NCBI RefSeq assembly: GCF_000305935.1
Contig: NC_018870.1
Location: 203,942-267,941, forward strand
Length of the DNA: 64,000 nucleotides
Source of the DNA: Thermacetogenium phaeum DSM 12270
GTDB lineage: Bacteria; Bacillota; DSM-12270; Thermacetogeniales; Thermacetogeniaceae
Direction of reading: 5' to 3'
This document shows positions 412 through 27,698 of the stretch, one piece after another; the first letter of the stretch is position 1, and each line of letters opens with the position of its first letter. Both the position numbers and the translations under genes were made by a program. Under the pieces are notes generated by a model that worked only from the letters and a program-made list of their open reading frames with translations, made no database searches and was not told the DNA's origin.

Positions 412-512
412 AGGCAGTGCTGGACACGAACGTGCTGGTCTCCGCCCTCCTGTTCCCTGGCGGGGCCCCCGACCGGGTGTTCAGGGCCGCCTTGAGGACC
501 GCCGGATGCTGA
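408..512 (+). pseudogene. Truncated PIN-domain toxin (VapC-like)
   Basis: Starts inside the antitoxin stop (ATGA overlap). The first residues, MKAVLDTNVLVSALLFPGG, are the typical PIN N-terminus with the first catalytic aspartate (DTN). The frame stops after 34 codons, where an intact PIN toxin has about 130-140. The break coincides with a group II intron 3' end (about 483-566), so the toxin was probably destroyed by that insertion and later deletion. The remaining catalytic acidic residues are missing, so it should be inactive, leaving an orphan antitoxin. Confidence 0.75.
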
Positions 513-566
513 CCCGCATGTCCGGTGGTGTGAGAGGACGGGGGCTAGCCGCTCCCTCCTACTCGA
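483..566 (+). mobile_element. 3' remnant of a group II intron (domains V/VI)
   Basis: The arms ACCGCCGGATGC and GCATGTCCGGTGGT form a domain V-like hairpin. It is followed by a GC-rich stem (GGGGGC...GCTCCC) and the tail CCTACTCGAT, resembling domain VI with its bulged A and the intron 3' end. No reverse transcriptase precedes it here. A reverse transcriptase scrap lies on the opposite strand at 1147-1221. The assignment rests on recalled group II intron 3'-end patterns and was not modelled. Confidence 0.55.
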
Positions 567-572
567 TGGCAG

Positions 573-1603: not shown

Positions 1604-3673
1604 ATGAGGGGTTCTCAAAAAAGCGTCAGAACTTTGTTGATTGCGGTCATTGTTGGGCTGACGGCCTTGATCTTTGCCGTGCTGGCGGGTTATACAGGCA
1701 GCAGTATCAGGTCTTACATCGTGGATGAGATCGGCAGGAGTTTGACCCTGCAGGCCGGAGAGGAAGCTCAGAAGCTCTACGGGCGTATTGTAGAGGTCGG
1801 CAAGTGTTCGGAGCTGCTGGCGTTGAATGTCGCCGCCGTCGGCTACCGGAATTCCGAGCAGCTGCTTTCCATAGCCAAAAAGTACGTCGAGGAGCATGAG
1901 CTTCTCTGCGGCAGCGGCATCTGGCTGGAACCGTACCTTTACGATGAAAACACGAAGTATTACGGGCCCTATATGTACAAGGACCCTTCCCAGGGCAAGG
2001 TTGAACTGACCTGGGACTACAGCAATGCGGATTACGATTACTTTCAGTATGACTGGTACAAAATAGGGCTGAATGCCGAAGGAAAAACTGCCTGGACGGA
2101 ACCTTTTCTGGATGAAGTCAGCGGCATCTATATGATCACCTGCTCCAGCCCCATCCGGGTCGATGGACGGGTGATTGGCGTAGCTACCGCTGATATCGGG
2201 CTGGACAACCTGAGAGAATACGTTAGGAGCATTAAGGTGGGCAAAAAAGGATACGCCTTTGTCGTAACCCGCGATGGGTATTTCCTGGGCAGCAGGGAGC
2301 CCGAAAAAGACCTGAAGCAGAAAATAACGGAGGATGAAGGGACCAGGGAGATCGGAAAGGCGATCCTGAGCGGCGAAAGCGGCGTCCGGCAGGCCAGATT
2401 CCAGGGGGAGGACTGCTTCGTGTCTTTCGCCTCCATCGGGGACACGGGCATGAAGCTGGTGGAAGTGCTGCCGCAGGCGGAGGCTTTCGCATCCCTGAAC
2501 AATATGCTCAAAGTCAACATGCTCATCCTGATTATTGCTCTGGCGGCTTTCGTTATCCTGCTGTCAACCGTGCTGCAGAGGAAGGTTATCCGGCCGTTGA
2601 ATGCGGTGATGTCTGGTGCCCGGAAGGTTGCAGAGGGGGATCTTGCCGGCTACCAAGCGGAGAAAAAAGACGACAGCGGCTATGCTCCTGATGAGTTGGG
2701 ACAACTTCGGCAGTCTTTTGATGGTATGGTGGACAGCCTGAGAGGGTTGATCTTGAGAATCAGCGATGCGGCGTCATCTCTGGTTTCTTCCTCCCAGCAG
2801 CTGAAAACTGCGGCAGAGCAGTCCGCCGCCGTGTCGGAGCAGATTGCCGCTACGACCAATGAACTCACCGAAGGGGTCTCCGAACAGGCCAGGCTGACCC
2901 AGGACGGCAGCAGGATGGTTTCAGAGATGCTCGATCAGCTGAAGCGTGTGGTGCAGAACTTAGAGGCATCGGAGGAGTACACCCGGAACGTCGATGAGGC
3001 CGTCGAGAACGGCAGGGAGAAAATCTCCTATCAGAAGCAGAAGATGGAAGAGAACAAAGAAAAAACCCTAGGCCTTGAGGCCGCCGTCTCCAGTCTGGGT
3101 GAAAAATCCCGGCAGATCGGTGACATTGTCGGTGTCATCGTCGGGATAGCCGATCAGACGAACCTGCTGGCGTTGAACGCCGCCATTGAGGCGGCCAGGG
3201 CCGGAGAGCAGGGAAGGGGTTTTGCGGTTGTTGCCGAAGAGGTGAGGAAGCTTGCCGAGCAGTCGGCGCAGGCCACCCGGGAAATTAGAACGATCATCGA
3301 GGAGATTCAGAACGGCATCGACAGCGCCACTGCCGAAATGAAAAAGGCCATCTCTGCCGTAGGCGAACAGGAGACGGCGGTGGAATTCACCTCTCAGGCG
3401 TTTAACCGGATTAATGAGGCGATCCGGGGTCTGCTTGAGGAAATCCGGGACGTTTCCCGAATGGCCGCCGAGCTCAGCAGAAATGCCGAAGAAGTGAAGA
3501 CCGGCATCGAGCGGGTTGCCGAGATATCCCAGGAGAGCGCTGCGGGCACAGAGGAGCTGGCGGCCTCCACGGAGGAGCAGACCGCATCCGACCAGGAGAT
3601 TTCCAGGGCGGCCGAAAAGCTGGCCGAGCTTGCCGCTCAGCTCCAGGAGCAGGTGAAAAAGTTTAGGCTGTAG
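1604..3673 (+). CDS. Methyl-accepting chemotaxis protein with dCache sensor
   Basis: A 689-residue membrane chemoreceptor that passes ligand binding to CheA/CheW. Visible order: short cytoplasmic start, TM1 at about 9-30, a periplasmic double-Cache-like sensor at about 40-290 (the DWY and WTEPFLDE segments are typical), TM2 at about 303-325, HAMP, then a long methylation/signalling coiled coil. The highly conserved tip lies at about 510-560 and contains [20 protein letters not shown]. The ATG at 1604 follows AGGAG and a second AGG. No chemotaxis genes are adjacent, so it is an orphan receptor. The ligand is unknown; dCache domains often bind amino acids or other small molecules. Its last 24 codons lie within a 310-bp segment duplicated downstream at 5697. 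Confidence 0.95.
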
Positions 3674-3906
3674 GCTGTTCTGGCAGCAAAAAACTTTGTG
3701 AGGGGCGGAAGGGCGTTTCTTGCCCTTTCGCCGGGAGTACTCTATAATAGGCTTGACGACCTGGCGAGGGAGCGGTTCGCCTTGCCGGAGATCGAATGAT
3801 CTGTGTCTGGGGCCGGGCAGTACCGCCCCGCCGGGAGACTGCCGGGCCGCGGGAGAGATCCGCCGGGGGCTCGGATCCGGATGCCGTTATCGAGGGAGAT
3901 GAGGAT
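3597..3906 (+). repeat. Direct repeat copy 1 (about 310 bp): chemoreceptor 3' end plus intergenic
   Basis: Contains the last 24 codons of the chemoreceptor gene and the following intergenic DNA up to GAGGGAGATGAGGAT. It matches 5697-6005 with only scattered substitutions and a few single-base indels. Similarity starts at AGATTTCCAGGGCGG and ends at GATGAGGAT in both copies. In this copy the receptor frame is intact, so it is likely the original 5' context. Confidence 0.9.
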
Positions 3907-5169: not shown

Positions 5170-5766
5170 ATGGATGTTTTGGTTGATCTCAAAAAGCTGC
5201 AGCAAGTTGTTGAAAGCTTCGGAAGCAACCCTCTCATAGAGAAGACCATCCGCAAGTTAATAAGTTTGAGAAAGCAAGAGCTAAAGCGGACCCTGCGACA
5301 TCTTTCAGAAGAGATTAAGGCTCTGGAGCAGCGCTATCAGTTGAGCTCTTCTGATTTCCAAAAGCGCTATGCCGAGGGGGCTCTTGGCGACGATGTGGAC
5401 CTCATCAAATGGGCCAGCTTCTTAGACATGCAACAGCGTGTTCAGGCGCAGCTGGGAGCATCTCGAGAAATGACCACTGCACGCTATTTTGAAAGATTAA
5501 AAATGATGTTGTTGCAATTGGAATTTGTGGAGGAAGTGATTGTCCGCGAAGAATTAATCACTGATGACTTTGGATACCTCCGCCTGCGTTTCACTCTGAG
5601 CAACGGAGATATTGTAGAATTGTTTGAATACGTGGTGAAGGATCAGAATGCGATAAGAACGGTTAACTATAGCTTTCATCTGCAGGATGCGAATGCAGAT
5701 TTCCAGGGCGGCCGAAAAGCTGGCCGAGCTTGCCGCTCAGCTCCAGGAGCAGGTGAAAAACTTTAA
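5170..5766 (+). CDS. Fused antitoxin and TumE-like (DUF6516) toxin with replaced C-terminus
   Basis: A 198-residue product in two parts. Residues 1-95 are helical and contain LEQRYQLSSSDFQKRYAEG and GDDVDLIKW, as in short antitoxins that usually precede TumE toxins. Residues about 101-178, beginning at an internal ATG (5470), resemble DUF6516/TumE: ARYFERL, ELITDDFGYLRLRF and YSFHLQD. The two are normally separate genes. The expected toxin end (a basic, aromatic-rich tail) is missing. From 5697 the frame runs, out of register, into the duplicated chemoreceptor tail, giving an artificial C-terminus rich in Arg and Gly. GAAGGGGGGAAAAA precedes the ATG. Toxicity was probably lost. Family calls are from motif memory. 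Confidence 0.55.
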   Translation: MDVLVDLKKLQQVVESFGSNPLIEKTIRKLISLRKQELKRTLRHLSEEIKALEQRYQLSSSDFQKRYAEGALGDDVDLIKWASFLDMQQRVQAQLGASREMTTARYFERLKMMLLQLEFVEEVIVREELITDDFGYLRLRFTLSNGDIVELFEYVVKDQNAIRTVNYSFHLQDANADFQGGRKAGRACRSAPGAGEKL

Positions 5767-6005
5767 GCTTTAGGCCGGTTCTGACAGCAAAAAACTTTGT
5801 CAGGAGCGGAAGGGTGTTTCTTGCCCTTTCGCCGGGAGTACTCTATAATAGGCTTGACGACCTGGCAAGGGCGGTTCGCCTTGCCGAGAGCGAAATGATC
5901 TGTGTCTGGGGCCGGGCAGTACTGCCCCGCCGGGAGACTGCCGGGCCGTGAGAGAGATCCGCCGGGAGCCCGACGCCGGATGCCGTTATCGAGGGAGATG
6001 AGGAT
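5697..6005 (+). repeat. Direct repeat copy 2 (about 309 bp)
   Basis: Second copy of the 3597-3906 segment. It runs from the truncated end of the TumE-like gene to the start of the DUF362 gene. The chemoreceptor tail codons are present and well conserved (ending AACTTTAAGCTTTAG) but belong to no receptor here. The copy ends within the first codons of the DUF362 gene, so the shared segment joins the end of one gene to the start of another, as if chemoreceptor and DUF362 gene were once adjacent. Confidence 0.9.
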
Positions 6006-8102: not shown

Positions 8103-8147
8103 GAGGGCGGCGGAAGCGTCGTTTTGAATCTCGGGGGGATACCTGTG

Positions 8148-9905
8148 ATGGAAAGGTTCGGCCGCAGCAGGGAGTTGAAGGGAGGAGCGGGGCGCGCCCG
8201 CGGCGTCAGAAGCGGTGCGGGAAGGAGGGCGGGAGCGCCTTTGAGGCTCTCGGTGCCCCTGTTGGGGGTTCTGGCGGTTGCTGCCTTTGCCCTCTGCTTC
8301 TGGCACTCCTACTACGACTCCGCCTTCATGGGGCTCATCTACAACGATGCCCAGGACTACGCCAGCATCGCCCGCAACGTCGCCTCAGGCAGAGGCCTCA
8401 TCTCCCAGTACCTGACCCCCTTAAGCCTCGCCCACTTCGGGGTGCCGCAGCCCGACGTCTGGCGCGCCCCCCTCTGGCCGCTGCTCCTGGCCGCCTTCCA
8501 GCGGGTCTTCGGCTTCATCGACGAGGCCTCCGCCCTGGCCGGGGGCTTCTGCTTCGCCGCCGGGGCCGCGCTCACGTTCCTTTTGGGGAGGCGCTGGTTC
8601 AACACCCCCGTCGCCCTGGCCGCAGCCGCCCTCTGCGCCTTCAGCGGGCAGCTGCTCTCCTTCAGCATCTCCGGGCTCACCGAGCCGCTGGCCGTTCTCC
8701 TGATGGCGGGCTGGCTTTACCTGCTGACGGCCGCCCCGCTCTCGCCCTGGGGGCCGTTTTTGGCCGGACTCGGGGGCGGGGTCTTTTACCTCGCCCGCTA
8801 CAACGCCCTCCTCTTCTTCCTGCCCGCTCTGGTCTACCTCTGGTGGGTCCGGCGGCCGCGGCGGGAGCCCCGCCCAGACCTGGGCGCGCCGTTTGGAGCA
8901 GGCAGGAAAGGGGATGCCCTGCAGGGGGCGGCAGGGGGGCGGCGCCGCGCCGCCTTTGCGGCTCCGGCCGCCCTCTTCGTCCTGGGCTTCCTGCTGGCGG
9001 CCGGGCCCTGGCTCTGGCGCAACTGCGCTCTGACCGGGAACCCCTTCTTCTCCCTGCAGCAGTACGAGCCGGTCATGTTCACCAGGACCTATCCGGAGTA
9101 CAGCCTCTACAGAAGGGCGGAGATCGTGGACGTGGCGGGATTTTTGCTCTCTCATCTGGAGGAGGTCGGGGAGAAGGTCGCCGCCGGGTGGGGGGAGTTC
9201 GCCGGGGGCTTCTGGAAGCCGGAGTTCACGGGGGTGGCCCTCCCGGTCTTCATCCTCTTCCTGCTCTCCCTGGCCCTGCCCCTGGACGCCTCCTTTCCCG
9301 CCCAGAGGGGCGTGCGGCCGCTTCTCATCTCCTGCTTTCTCCTCCAGCTGGCGGCCCTCCTCCCCCTGCACTACATCCCCCGGCTCTTCATCATCTTCGC
9401 CCCTCTGTACGCGATCTACGCCTGCGGGGCGGTCTGGCAGCTGGCCGCAGGGGGGTTGAGGCTCCTCCGCCTGCCGGCGGTTTCGGCGGCGGTTCTGGCG
9501 GCGGCACTCCTGGCGGCCTTCACCATCTCCGGCGTCAGGGCCAACTACCCCGACTTCCACCCGGAGCCGCCCGGGCCGCATCCCCGTTCCCTGCGGGCGG
9601 AGGCGATCTCCGACGTCCGGAGGGCGCTTTCCCCGGACCGGGTGGTGGTCTCCGACAGCGGCCACATCTTCGCCTGGTACGGGGAGCGCTATGCCTTGAA
9701 ACTCCCCTATTCACCGGCCGACCTGCCGGAGGTCGCCCGCCTCGCCCCGGTAGGCGCCCTCTTCCTCTCCAACTGGATCACCTGGAATTCCCCCGATGCC
9801 GACCCGGCCTGGGTGGAGGTCTACCTCTCCCGGCCGCCCGCTCTGCACGGGCTGAGGCTCGCCAAGGTCTACCCCGACGGCAGCCTTCTGTATCTGGCGG
9901 ATTGA
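8148..9905 (+). CDS. GT39/ArnT-like polytopic glycosyltransferase family protein
   Basis: About 585 residues with roughly ten hydrophobic segments and a soluble C-terminal part. After the first membrane segment comes a loop with YNDAQDYASIARNVASG, matching the acidic catalytic loop of GT39/PMT/ArnT-like enzymes that transfer sugars from polyprenyl phosphates. GLTEPLAVLLMAGWLYLL in the middle is also typical. The C-terminal part (GHIFAWYGERYALKLPYSPA) is a periplasmic domain. ATG at 8148, with GGGGGGA nine bases upstream; GTG at 8145 is possible. The N-terminus is Arg/Gly-rich. Acceptor unknown; probably cell-surface glycan or protein modification. Confidence 0.75.
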   Translation: MERFGRSRELKGGAGRARGVRSGAGRRAGAPLRLSVPLLGVLAVAAFALCFWHSYYDSAFMGLIYNDAQDYASIARNVASGRGLISQYLTPLSLAHFGVPQPDVWRAPLWPLLLAAFQRVFGFIDEASALAGGFCFAAGAALTFLLGRRWFNTPVALAAAALCAFSGQLLSFSISGLTEPLAVLLMAGWLYLLTAAPLSPWGPFLAGLGGGVFYLARYNALLFFLPALVYLWWVRRPRREPRPDLGAPFGAGRKGDALQGAAGGRRRAAFAAPAALFVLGFLLAAGPWLWRNCALTGNPFFSLQQYEPVMFTRTYPEYSLYRRAEIVDVAGFLLSHLEEVGEKVAAGWGEFAGGFWKPEFTGVALPVFILFLLSLALPLDASFPAQRGVRPLLISCFLLQLAALLPLHYIPRLFIIFAPLYAIYACGAVWQLAAGGLRLLRLPAVSAAVLAAALLAAFTISGVRANYPDFHPEPPGPHPRSLRAEAISDVRRALSPDRVVVSDSGHIFAWYGERYALKLPYSPADLPEVARLAPVGALFLSNWITWNSPDADPAWVEVYLSRPPALHGLRLAKVYPDGSLLYLAD

Positions 9906-10031
9906 CCCATCGGGGGTCGAACCCTATTCAAGATAAAAAGGTTGACCCCTGCGGCAGCGAACCCCGGCGAATTCAGCCGGGGTCGGGAGTGGAGGCGGGG
10001 ATCAACCGGAATGCGGCTTTACAGGAGACGC

Positions 10032-10290
10032 CGGCGGCGGCACCGACAGAACGAAAAAAAGGGTTTATCCTTGCCGCCGCAGCGGCCTTATTACGGAGGC
10101 TGTGCTGCTCGCCCCTGACGAGGAAGCGCAAACGGCAGCCGATTCTAGGTAGGACGTCGCGGTGGGCGGCTCTGCGGCAGGGGTGCCGTCAGAGGAGCCG
10201 GTCGGCTGCCGTTTGCGGCAGGTCTTAGGCGAGTCAAACCGGAAGATCCGGGAGCAGGCGCAAAGACGAACCGCGACGCATTGTTCAGGT
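10032..10290 (+). ncRNA. Repeated structured RNA element, copy A
   Basis: Lies in the 390-base gap after the GT39-like gene. It is clearly homologous to copy B (26693-26970) and has a head shared with copy C (minus strand, 10756-11055): GCGGCACCGACAGA. Stems visible: CGGCC (10083-10087) with GGCTG (10098-10102); CTCTG-CGGCA with TGCCG-(T)-CAGAG (10170-10194); and a perfect 15-bp pair GCAAACGGCAGCCGA (10128-10142) with TCGGCTGCCGTTTGC (10202-10216). Closing arms GGTTTATCCTT (10062-10072) and AAAGACGAACC (10262-10272) pair imperfectly. No open frame is conserved between copies. The family is unknown to me. Confidence 0.7.
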
Positions 10291-10297
10291 CAGGGTG

Positions 10298-10663
10298 CTA
10301 CATTAAGGTGAGATAGATGGCATCCCCCTCCTTGCAGGCTCTGGCCAGCTCGCAGTGGCGCAGAACGGCGAAGTTGTTCTGCAGCTCCTCCGGGGAGATC
10401 CCCAGGGCCCCGGCGATCTCCTCCCGGGTGGCCTTCCCCTTCTCCTTCAGGTAGTCGTAGATCTTCTTCTGAAGGGGCGTCAGCCCGTCCGTACCCTTCT
10501 GCCCCTGCAGCTCCCGGGCGGTTCGGGCCGCGGAAACCGCCCCCGGATCGCAGGGCTGAGGCCGCGTCAAAGCGGCGATGTAGCAGTCCTCGCAGAGCTT
10601 CATCCCTGCGTGGCCGTAGATTTCGTCCTCCGGGACGTCGGCCTGGCATTTTTCACAGCGCAT
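10298..10663 (-). CDS. Zinc-ribbon plus winged-helix small regulator-like protein
   Basis: A 121-residue protein with an N-terminal four-cysteine site (CEKC at the start and CEDC about 20 residues later, LIM/zinc-ribbon-like) and a C-terminal winged-helix-like segment, TPLQKKIYDYLKEKGKATRE, followed by EIAGALGISPEELQ. It is probably a DNA-binding or redox/metal-responsive regulator. ATG start with GGAGGTGG upstream on the minus strand. It stands alone between RNA element copies A and C. No partner can be named. Confidence 0.7.
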   Translation of the reverse strand: MRCEKCQADVPEDEIYGHAGMKLCEDCYIAALTRPQPCDPGAVSAARTARELQGQKGTDGLTPLQKKIYDYLKEKGKATREEIAGALGISPEELQNNFAVLRHCELARACKEGDAIYLTLM

Positions 10664-10755
10664 TACTCTTCCACCTCCCGATCGGTTGAAGTAAGAGGTT
10701 GATAACTGGCGTCCGGTGTGCTCCCGGCCCCCTTTTGGGAAACCGCATCCCTGTC

Positions 10756-11055
10756 ATGAAAATAGATCGCATACCCTGCCGGTCTACCGCTCGACTCCCG
10801 ATTCCAGGCCGGACAGGACGACGGCTCGCTTCGGGACAGCTCTGGGATGCTGCGTAACAAGTTGCGAACTGCTTCTGCCAGTCGCAGCGTTTGGCCTCGC
10901 AGCAAATCCATTCCATCGAAACTCTTAAGGTGTCTGTACTCGCATCCCGACCTGTCATCCTCGCTTCGCCTGTCCTGTTACCCGGCCTTCCATAGGTCGC
11001 TCGCCGGCAGACCCGTCGGGTATTTTCATACTCTGTTGGTGCCGCCGGAGGCGGC
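10756..11055 (-). ncRNA. Repeated structured RNA element, copy C (diverged)
   Basis: On the minus strand the stretch opens with GGCGGCACCAACAGA, the same head as copies A and B. It then has a closing pair, TATTTTCAT (plus 11021-11029) with ATGAAAATA (plus 10756-10764), an inner pair CTGCCGG/CCGGCAG, and the segment TGCCGGCGAGCGACC, matching TGCCGGCGCAGCGACC of copy B. The remaining interior has diverged. No convincing protein is encoded on either strand in 10664-11110. Homology is weaker than between A and B but supported by head, core segment and equivalent closing stem. Confidence 0.5.
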
Positions 11056-11110
11056 ATGGGTGTCTGCCCGGAGAGGGGCCGGGGCAGGGCTCTGTGAAGG
11101 CTCCCTGCCT

Positions 11111-11464
11111 TCAGCTGTTCTCCGGCAGTGCCCCGTAATCCTTCAAAGCCTTGATGACGTAAGAGGTATAGGCAATCCCCGGGCCCCCGCCCATCATGAT
11201 GGCCACACTGCACGCCTCCAGGATCTCTTCCACCGTTGCCCCTGAGTCAAGCGCCTGCTTGACGTGGTTGGCTATTCAGGGCTGACAGCGGATGGCGACG
11301 GAAACGGCGATCCCGATCAGCTCTTTGAACTTCAGCGAGAGGGCGCCCTCCCGGTGCACCCCCCGGGCTATGCCCTGGAAGCCCTTCATGATTTCGGGAA
11401 ACCGTTTTTGCAGTTCCGCCCGGCCTTCTTCGAGGGTCTTCAGCAGGTTCTCCATTTCCTTCAC
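11111..11464 (-). CDS. AhpD/carboxymuconolactone decarboxylase-like selenoprotein (CxxU)
   Basis: A 117-residue CMD/AhpD-fold protein if the in-frame TGA at codon 63 (11276-11278) is read as selenocysteine. Cysteine relatives have CxxC in the active site; here the codons give R-C-Q-P-UGA, and homology continues without a frameshift: IANHVKQAL, VEEILEACSVAIMMGGGPG, then DYGALPENS. Twelve bases after the UGA is a 7-bp hairpin with a 4-base loop, placed like a bacterial SECIS. The family performs thiol-based redox or peroxide-related chemistry. GTG start at 11464 follows GGAGG with 8-base spacing; ATG at 11455 is an alternative. A strong promoter and an operator-like dyad lie upstream. Simple gene callers would split or truncate it. 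Confidence 0.8.
11246..11263 (-). promoter_or_regulatory. Candidate SECIS hairpin
   Basis: On the minus strand, GTCAAGC-AGGC-GCTTGAC makes a perfect 7-bp stem with a short loop containing GG, starting 12 bases after the UGA. Bacterial SECIS loops bind SelB and lie within the first tens of bases after the UGA, within the coding region. Position, stem and loop fit; binding is untested. Confidence 0.6.
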
Positions 11465-11531
11465 CCTTCTCTCCTCCCTGGTCGGTGATTTCCGGCTGGT
11501 AGATGAACGGCAATTAAATAGCCTTAAACTT

Positions 11532-26464: not shown

Positions 26465-26692
26465 GGGGCGGCAACTGCTTCCATCGGCTTAAATCCCTCG
26501 TTTTTGAAAACCGGCCCGTCGGCCCTGAGGCCAGGTGTCCCGTCCGCTTAGGGCTTCACCGGTGAGGTGCGGCCCGCGGCCGGCAGCCGCTTCTTTTTGC
26601 GGCCTTCTCTGCGGCCCCTGCCGAAAGCCGTCCGCTGCGGGGGATCAAGAGGCGGTCGCCGTCGGCTGTCACCAGCAGACCATCGTGCCGCT
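26465..26692 (+). other. Intergenic region before RNA copy B
   Basis: GC-rich, no gene seen. It contains several GCCGGC-type inverted repeats and a small stretch, GGCCTTCTCTGCGGCC. It may be leader or flank of the structured RNA that follows. Confidence 0.3.
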
Positions 26693-26970
26693 GGCGGCGG
26701 CACCAACAGAGGAACGAAAAAAAGGTTTATCCTTGCCGGCGCAGCGACCTGACGGAGGTCGTTACTCGCCCTTGACGAAGGAGCAGCAAACGGCAGCCGA
26801 ATCGAAATAGGATGTCGAGGTAGACGACTCTGCGCCAGGGAAGGCGCATAGGAGCCGGTCGGCTGCTTATCTATCGACGAGTTTTAGGCGAGTTTAACCG
26901 AAAGATCCGAGAGCAGGTGTAAGGATAAACCGAAACGTATTTTCGGGCAGTACAAGGACGTTGAGATAGG
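26693..26970 (+). ncRNA. Repeated structured RNA element, copy B
   Basis: Best-preserved copy. A perfect 11-bp closing stem joins GGTTTATCCTT (26724-26734) and AAGGATAAACC (26921-26931). Inside are CGACC-TGACGGA-GGTCG (26745-26761), TGCGCC-AGGGAA-GGCGCA (26831-26848) and GCAGCCGA (26793-26800) with TCGGCTGC (26859-26866). Compared with copy A, the first stem changes an A-U pair to G-C at the same position and the second hairpin is rebuilt with different bases, as expected for a conserved RNA fold. No open frame is conserved between copies. Located in a 574-base gap between the SH3 gene and the coiled-coil gene. Confidence 0.75.
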
Positions 26971-27038
26971 CGATATAAAAGGGGTAAACGGTTTAAGTGC
27001 AGTTAGATCTTCTTGTCCAGAAAAAAGGGGGGAGCGGG

Positions 27039-27698
27039 GTGGATAACGAGCAGTTCCAGGAACTGGTTTTGAGGCAGCTGCGAGAGCTGACCGAAGGCCA
27101 GAGGGCGCTCGCGGATGGGCAGAACAGGCTGGACGCCCGGATGGGGAAGGTAGAGAACCGTCTGGAAGGCCTGGACGCCCGGGTGGGGAAAGTAGAGGAC
27201 CGGCTGGAGGGTCTGGAGAACCGGATGGGGAAGGTAGAGAACCGTCTGGAAGGTCTGGACGCCCGGGTGGGGAAGGTAGAGGACCGGCTGGAGGGTCTGG
27301 AGAACCGGATGGGGAAGGTAGAGAACCGTCTGGAAGGTCTGGACGCCCGGGTGGGGAAGGTAGAAGGCCGGTTGGAAGGCCTGGACATCCGGATGGGGAA
27401 AGTGGAAGACCGTATAGGGCAGGTCGAAACCGGGATGGGTGATATCGGAACCCGGATCGATAACCTGGAGAAGCTCCAGCTGCGGGTGGAGACCCGCCTG
27501 GACGGTGAAATTCTCGAAAAGATCCGGGCGCTCTTCGATGCCCGCCAGGTATCGCTGGATTACTATGCCAGCATCAAAAACAGTCTGGCACGCATCGAAG
27601 AGGGGCTGGACTACCTGCGCCGGCGCACCGCCGAGCACGATTTGAAGTTCCTGGAGTACGACCGTGAATTGCGGTTATTGAGAATGGAAAAAAAATAA
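27039..27698 (+). CDS. Coiled-coil protein built from 14-residue repeats
   Basis: About 219 residues, almost entirely coiled coil. After a start with DNEQFQELVLRQLRELTEGQ come repeated 14-residue (two-heptad) units of the type MGKVENRLEGLDAR and VGKVEDRLEGLENR, then a non-repeated C-terminal helix region (SLDYYASIKNSLARIEEGLD). Similar repeat proteins are often annotated only as hypothetical. GTG at 27039 follows AAAAGGGGGG; an upstream GTG at 26997 lacks a site. No signal peptide. It directly follows RNA element copy B. Function unknown. Confidence 0.7.
   Translation: MDNEQFQELVLRQLRELTEGQRALADGQNRLDARMGKVENRLEGLDARVGKVEDRLEGLENRMGKVENRLEGLDARVGKVEDRLEGLENRMGKVENRLEGLDARVGKVEGRLEGLDIRMGKVEDRIGQVETGMGDIGTRIDNLEKLQLRVETRLDGEILEKIRALFDARQVSLDYYASIKNSLARIEEGLDYLRRRTAEHDLKFLEYDRELRLLRMEKK
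27129..27413 (+). repeat. 42-bp tandem repeats inside the coiled-coil gene
   Basis: Alternating 42-bp units (84-bp super-unit) of the type GGACGCCCGGRTGGGGAARG followed by TAGAGRACCG. At least two super-units are nearly identical at DNA level, so recent duplication or slippage is likely and copy number may vary between strains. Confidence 0.85.

What the first reader, a model, noticed from the sequence alone, without database searches (positions are those of the whole stretch)
10032..10290. Undescribed structured RNA family, copy A, with a 15-bp perfect internal helix
A and B share sequence along about 250 bases and differ in stems by compensating changes (for example G-C for A-U at the same pair in the first stem; the second hairpin rebuilt with different bases). 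No protein frame is conserved. I cannot match it to RNase P, tmRNA, 6S, SRP, group II introns or a riboswitch I know.
Basis: seen in the sequence. Interest (0 to 1): 0.85.

Follow-up and report, generated by a model that had tools for sequence, protein, structure and literature searches.

The report
Known TwoAYGGAY RNA in mobile repeats
The RNA is real but not new: it is a worn-out copy of a known bacterial RNA of unknown function (TwoAYGGAY), and the new point is that this RNA is spread through genomes in dozens of copies by small mobile DNA elements, some of which insert into the stop signals of transcription.

Summary
"Undescribed RNA family" does not hold. Copy A belongs to a ~277-bp dispersed repeat with about 48 matches in this 2.94-Mb genome. 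Sister copies in the same genome, about 80% identical to A, pass the Rfam gathering score for TwoAYGGAY (RF01731: 48.6, 46.2 and 45.3 bits against 43). Copy A itself is below the score and has lost defining loop features, so it looks like an old, decaying copy.

RNA-type covariation is strong over 47 copies: 115 double-change cells against 39±6 shuffled.

What I could not find in the literature held: TwoAYGGAY is carried by MITE-like mobile elements. There are empty sites, including one in this genome. Copy numbers reach 52 or more. The ends differ between lineages. The core also occurs inverted between the same ends. In one genome 37 of 39 copies sit in duplicated intrinsic-terminator hairpins.

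Function remains unknown. CsrA binding (proposed in 2014) fits the GGA loops and csrA co-occurrence (49/51 genomes), but that correlation is partly explained by flagellation.

The parts
10026..10293 (+). Copy A of the dispersed repeat (5' module, TwoAYGGAY-like core, 3' end TTGTTCAGGTCAG). Its 5' end is degenerate.
   Evidence: siblings E 1.7e-59, 80% identity; matches consensus 13-277 at genome 213970-214234
10061..10073 (+). 5' arm of the inverted repeat that bounds the core (GGGTTTATCCTTG). The 3' arm is 10261-10272 (CAAAGACGAACC) and is decayed in copy A; intact copies have CAAGGATAAACC.
   Evidence: sequence
10081..10106 (+).
   Evidence: 97.3% of cells paired; AU to GC at cols 17/32
10107..10113 (+). 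5' strand of the closing stem (GCTCGCC); partner 10228-10234 (GGCGAGT)
   Evidence: helix 3 (91% paired, CG to UA double changes in 10 sequences)
10127..10142 (+). 5' strand of the perfect 16-bp helix; partner 10202-10217
   Evidence: self-match, helix 4 (7 of 10 pairs with double changes)
10143..10162 (+). Hairpin 1 (AYGGAY hairpin), degenerate in copy A: the tandem G.A and the closing pair are lost
10166..10199 (+). Hairpin 2 (second AYGGAY hairpin). In copy A the loop is GGGG instead of GGGA or YGGA, and one G.A of the tandem is lost.
10202..10217 (+). 3' strand of the 16-bp helix
26677..26950 (+). Copy B of the same repeat (92% identical to the consensus)
   Evidence: genome 230618-230891
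10750..11068 (-). A second high-copy repeat ('element 2', 42 matches in this genome). It shares the 5' terminal hairpin module but has a different core and no Rfam match.
   Evidence: one search shows it abutting TwoAYGGAY copies in L005, L020, L023 and L024; (L065 and L066 scanned)

Best explanation
Copy A is an old, decaying copy of a ~277-bp non-autonomous mobile element (MITE-like). The element's ~190-nt core encodes a TwoAYGGAY RNA (RF01731). Shown: the family is homologous to RF01731; its stems covary; it is dispersed in many copies; elements carrying this core have inserted at sites that are empty in relatives; and the core sits inside unrelated terminal modules, in either orientation. 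Inferred: a transposase supplied in trans moves the element. The RNA folds as a closed multi-stem structure presenting two short hairpins with GGA in the loop and a tandem G.A in the stem, held close together as a paired protein-binding site, most plausibly for a CsrA dimer. The element would persist because its RNA is tolerated or useful in 3' untranslated regions and between genes. Copy A has lost the GGA loop of hairpin 2 and the intact hairpin 1, so it is probably no longer functional.
For: Homology: siblings at 75-80% identity to A over its length. Three own-genome copies are above the RF01731 gathering score, and 15 are at E<=0.1. RF01731 is found in 11 of 20 genomes of the order and 51 of 399 of the phylum, and in 0 of 14 control genomes. 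Structure: 115 double-change cells against 39 +/- 5.7 (0 of 500 shuffles), slid versions at most 22; the tandem non-Watson-Crick pairs of hairpin 2 (cols 103-104/139-140) are kept in 47 of 47; RNAalifold finds hairpins 1 and 2 on its own. Mobility: about 48 matches here, 41 to 68 in relatives, 52 or more in an unrelated family. Empty site for an order-type element in this very genome and in G012, with 91-97% identical flanks. Empty site for a G136 element in G407. 37 of 39 G136 copies have the same terminator hairpin (12-33 nt aligned) on both sides (own score mean 40.0 against 12.9 for mismatched pairs; 3 of 1482 mismatched pairs reach 24). Core inverted between the same outer modules. CsrA: GGA kept in loop 1 in 41 of 47 and in loop 2 in 42 of 47; csrA present in 49 of 51 RF01731+ genomes against 236 of 348 others, p 2.7e-6, and 25 of 25 families, p 4.6e-4. 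A CsrA-binding motif was matched in RF01731 by PMC4333381.
Against: No transposase was identified for any of these elements. In this genome no target duplication is seen: flank similarity 12.3 for true pairs against 13.1 for mismatched pairs. GU against AC intermediates, which should tell an RNA strand from a DNA palindrome, are not significantly skewed once one fixed GU column is left out (54 against 39, p 0.15). The csrA correlation is confounded: fliG is present in 50 of 51 RF01731+ genomes, and within fliG+ genomes csrA is 48/50 against 232/278, p 0.011. One near-complete RF01731+ genome (G197, 94%, 12 copies) has no csrA hit. No expression or binding data exist here.
Confidence: 0.85

Rival explanations
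1. An undescribed structured RNA family.
For: Copy A itself gives no credible Rfam match at gathering score or at E up to 5. It folds better than shuffles.
Against: Sister copies in the same genome and in 6 other genomes of the order pass the RF01731 gathering score over the whole 168-position model.
Confidence: 0.04
2. A purely DNA-level palindromic repeat (MITE or BOX-like). The stems are kept because the DNA must form hairpins for transposition, and no RNA function is selected.
For: High copy number, inverted repeats bounding the core, core found in both orientations relative to the outer modules, no significant GU/AC asymmetry, insertion at hairpins in G136.
Against: Tandem G.A steps and GGA loops are conserved in one strand (GGA 5.7 against TCC 0.8 per copy). 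The same core and loops recur in many bacterial families while the outer arms change. That is expected for an RNA and not for a transposon end.
Confidence: 0.3
3. A trans-acting CsrA sponge or cis CsrA site, amplified because it tunes CsrA activity in bacteria that lack CsrB-type RNAs (a specific version of the best explanation).
For: Two hairpins with GGA loops of the ACANGGAUGU type; csrA co-occurrence; published motif match (PMC4333381); upstream gene reads into the element in 28 of 39 G136 copies (p 0.009) and 17 of 24 own copies (p 0.064).
Against: Confounded with flagella. Loop GGA is lost in several own-genome copies (13 of 18 keep loop 1). G197 lacks csrA. No binding data.
Confidence: 0.3
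4. A cis-regulatory element or riboswitch of the next gene, as Rfam's type label 'Cis-reg' implies.
For: Rfam type label.
Against: Copies lie in all gene arrangements and many lie between convergent genes, copy A included. Weinberg 2010 scored it as not cis-regulatory.
Confidence: 0.05

Closest known systems
TwoAYGGAY RNA, Rfam RF01731 (clan CL00106)
   Same: Same overall architecture over all 168 model positions: closing stem, inner long stem, two adjacent hairpins with GGA-containing loops, tandem G.A; sister copies exceed the curated score.
   Different: Loop 1 in this genome is usually ACAGGAUGU (one base shorter than AYGGAY), loop 2 AGGGAU or AGGGAA. Copy A lacks both intact loops. It is carried in a mobile repeat, which the sources held do not describe.
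Bacterial MITEs / non-autonomous insertion elements
   Same: Short, no open frame, dispersed, inverted terminal repeats in several lineages, empty sites.
   Different: Contains a phylogenetically wide conserved RNA. The own-genome type shows no target duplication. The transposase is unknown.
IS1272/TnSha1 (IS1182 family)
   Same: Inserts into intrinsic-terminator hairpins without sequence preference (PMC4923244), like the G136 elements.
   Different: IS1272 partly deletes the hairpin. The G136 elements duplicate it. No IS1182 transposase was looked for.
CsrB/CsrC/RsmZ CsrA-sequestering RNAs
   Same: GGA motifs in hairpin loops.
   Different: Two main sites per copy instead of many, dozens of genomic copies, Bacillota hosts; binding untested.

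Membership tests
TwoAYGGAY RNA (RF01731) | Covariance-model score at or above gathering (43 bits): the repeat family | tested here: met
   Own-genome sister copies 48.6, 46.2 and 45.3 bits.
TwoAYGGAY RNA (RF01731) | Covariance-model score at or above gathering (43 bits): copy A itself | tested here: not met
   No RF01731 match for copy A. Copy A is a member by descent (80% identity to members), not by score.
TwoAYGGAY RNA (RF01731) | Two adjacent hairpins with GGA-containing AYGGAY-type loops | tested here: met
   GGA kept in loop 1 in 41 of 47 and loop 2 in 42 of 47 copies of the order. Copy A keeps neither in an intact form.
TwoAYGGAY RNA (RF01731) | Tandem G.A in a hairpin stem | tested here: met
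   Hairpin 2 cols 103-104/139-140 non-Watson-Crick in 47 of 47. Copy A has one position changed.
TwoAYGGAY RNA (RF01731) | Covariation in the stems | tested here: met
MITE-like non-autonomous mobile element | Dispersed near-identical copies without a gene | tested here: met
MITE-like non-autonomous mobile element | Occupied and empty sites | tested here: met
   (relatives of copy A, not copy A's own site)
MITE-like non-autonomous mobile element | Terminal inverted repeats and target duplication | tested here: inconclusive
   Clear in G136 and seen in single G270 and G063 copies. No duplication in the own genome, where the 5' flank instead resembles the element's 3' end.
MITE-like non-autonomous mobile element | Parent transposase with the same ends | not tested
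   Not searched for; none was seen in the loci read.
CsrA-binding regulatory RNA | Binds CsrA | not testable with these tools
   Only motif and co-occurrence.
RNase P, tmRNA, 6S, SRP, group II intron, riboswitches, HEARO/omega RNA | Rfam covariance-model match at this locus | tested here: not met

The most novel reading that the evidence does not exclude
TwoAYGGAY is not a host regulatory RNA in origin but the RNA core of a widespread class of Bacillota mobile elements. The core hops between different transposon ends, and in some hosts it is delivered into transcription terminators, so that dozens of mRNAs acquire the same 3'-UTR RNA, possibly forming a genome-wide CsrA sponge.
Probability: 0.35. 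Interest if true: 0.75.

Novelty: new member of a known kind. Interest (0 to 1): 0.5.

Why it matters
TwoAYGGAY has stood as an RNA of unknown function since 2010. Showing that it rides in mobile repeats explains why it appears in dozens of unrelated intergenic places and why its outer stem looked unconserved. It also gives a direct test of the CsrA proposal, and it warns that covariation alone does not make a host regulatory RNA. The terminator-duplicating insertions in G136 are an unusual target choice worth study in their own right.

Tried and rejected
Rfam on copy A alone, at gathering score and at E up to 5: nothing credible. Phage and plasmid collections: no DNA match to copy A. Target duplication in the own genome: absent. 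IS200/605-type targeting (5' flank YAG resembling the element's 3' end TTTTCAnGGYAG) was considered for this genome; it fits the flanks but no transposase was tested, so it is not claimed. Retrotransposition (variable-length duplications) was considered for G136 and G063; own-genome truncations occur at both ends, so there is no support. GU/AC strand test: not significant. Strict orientation of G136 insertions relative to terminators: first seen in 10 copies, but in 10 of 39 copies both neighbours lie on the minus strand and the terminator appears to belong to the downstream one, so only a bias remains. Literature search for drum and skipping-rope RNAs, possible relatives: nothing useful held; Weinberg 2017 not held.

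Full report
WHAT WAS CLAIMED AND WHAT IS THERE. The internal helix is 16 bp perfect (10127-10142 with 10202-10217), copy A folds better than all 100 shuffles (z -3.7), and copy B lies at 26677-26950. The example of compensation is genuine: G-C in A against A-U in B in the local hairpin 10081-10106.

COPY NUMBER. In the whole genome (G000, one contig of 2,939,057 bp; from memory this is the size of Thermacetogenium phaeum DSM 12270, not verified by a tool) copy A has 34 matches and a consensus of the repeat has 48. A is an outlier: most full-length copies are 89-97% identical to the consensus, A is 80%. The consensus element is ~277 bp: a 5' module with a GC-rich hairpin (AGACC...GCCGCC-ATC-GGCGGC-ACCAACAGAG), a 12-bp inverted repeat GGTTTATCCTTG...CAAGGATAAACC around a ~190-nt core, and a 3' end TATTTTCAGGGCAG.

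IDENTITY. Rfam gives nothing for A. Siblings do match: in related genomes and in this genome the core matches RF01731 TwoAYGGAY over the whole model and above the curated score (48.6, 46.2 and 45.3 bits here against 43). So the family is known. Literature held: found by Weinberg and colleagues in 2010, scored probably an RNA and not cis-regulatory (PMC2864571); proposed as CsrA-binding from motif matches, with tandem G.A noted, in 2014 (PMC4333381). I found no held paper that reports mobility.

STRUCTURE. On 47 distinct cores from the order (A1), a structure written from one relative gives 115 cells with changes on both sides against 39 +/- 5.7 in shuffles (0 of 500), with at most 22 for slid partners. 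RNAalifold on its own recovers hairpins 1 and 2 with two-sided changes. The tandem non-Watson-Crick step in hairpin 2 is present in all 47. GGA is kept in loop 1 in 41 and in loop 2 in 42. Copy A departs at exactly these features: loop 2 is GGGG, the tandem G.A of hairpin 1 and one G.A of hairpin 2 are changed, and the 3' arm of the bounding inverted repeat is decayed (and sequence). I read A as a decaying copy.

MOBILITY. (1) RF01731 is multi-copy in many families: 41 in G010, 39 in G270, 29 in G063, 28 in G193, and 52 (the scoring limit) in G136. (2) The outer arms differ between lineages while the core is the same: inverted ends such as CAGACTGTAGACAAA (G136, G270), TGATTTAGGTGTA (G063) and GGGTGTGC (G193). 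(3) In G010-G012 the core is inverted between the same outer modules, with the bounding inverted repeat intact. (4) Empty sites: a G010/G011 copy is absent, with 91-97% identical flanks, from this genome at 1,804,014-1,804,034 and from G012; a G136 copy is absent from its congener G407, which has one terminator hairpin where G136 has two plus the element. (5) In G136, 37 of 39 copies are flanked on both sides by the same terminator hairpin (12-33 nt aligned); mismatched pairs reach the same score in 3 of 1482. In this genome no such duplication is seen, so the ends, and probably the enzymes, differ between lineages.

FUNCTION. Unknown and inferred only. The two GGA hairpins are the strongest clue. 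csrA is present in 49 of 51 RF01731-positive genomes against 236 of 348 others (p 2.7e-6) and in 25 of 25 families (p 4.6e-4) (counts read by me from the tables). However fliG is present in 50 of 51, and within fliG-positive genomes the csrA excess is modest (48/50 against 232/278, p 0.011). Upstream genes read into the element in 28 of 39 G136 copies (p 0.009) and 17 of 24 own copies (p 0.064) (ORF-based, rough). The strand test by GU against AC is not significant (54 against 39). I therefore hold 'mobile element with an RNA core' firmly and 'CsrA ligand' at about 0.3.

CONTEXT OF COPY A. It lies between a membrane glycosyltransferase-like gene (8124-9905 +, PF13231) and a convergent small winged-helix gene (10298-10663 -, weak HTH), about 120 bp after the stop codon of the first. 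A second high-copy repeat with the same 5' module (10750-11068 -, 42 matches) lies about 450 bp on.

VERDICT. Observation confirmed; 'undescribed family' rejected; a degenerate new member of RF01731 within a mobile repeat. The interesting part is the mobility of TwoAYGGAY in general, not this copy.

Noticed in passing
window 11105-11470, minus strand: A carboxymuconolactone decarboxylase/AhpD-like protein (PF02627, 70.5 bits) with an in-frame TGA in place of the second active-site cysteine (RCQP-U-IANH), a likely selenoprotein.
   Followed up: partly
window 10750-11068, minus strand: A second ~319-bp repeat (42 matches in this genome, also in G004 and G010-G012) with the same 5' terminal module as the TwoAYGGAY repeat but a different, unmatched core. 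Shortened forms with the middle missing also exist.
   Followed up: partly
L181-L220 (G136), e.g. L209, L217, L195: Insertion into intrinsic terminators with duplication of the whole hairpin, an unusual target choice for a small element.
   Followed up: yes
L063-L066, L076 and L080: Mosaic elements: an internal segment replaced by another structured core, or only the two ends left (107 bp, genome 865739-865845), as if cores were exchangeable.
   Followed up: partly
window 497-567, plus strand: Group II intron domain V (RF00029, 41.6 bits, just over the cut-off).
   Followed up: no
window 27029-27490: Eight or more copies of a 42-bp tandem repeat inside an ORF, shortly downstream of copy B.
   Followed up: no
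window 3597-3906 and 5697-6005: A duplicated ~310-bp stretch 2.1 kb apart, at 87-96% identity, including the end of a methyl-accepting chemotaxis gene.
   Followed up: no
L004 866-985: A molybdenum/tungsten cofactor riboswitch (RF01055, 68.6 bits) about 500-600 bp upstream of a TwoAYGGAY copy, and a sub-threshold SECIS_3 match at 2886-2944.
   Followed up: no
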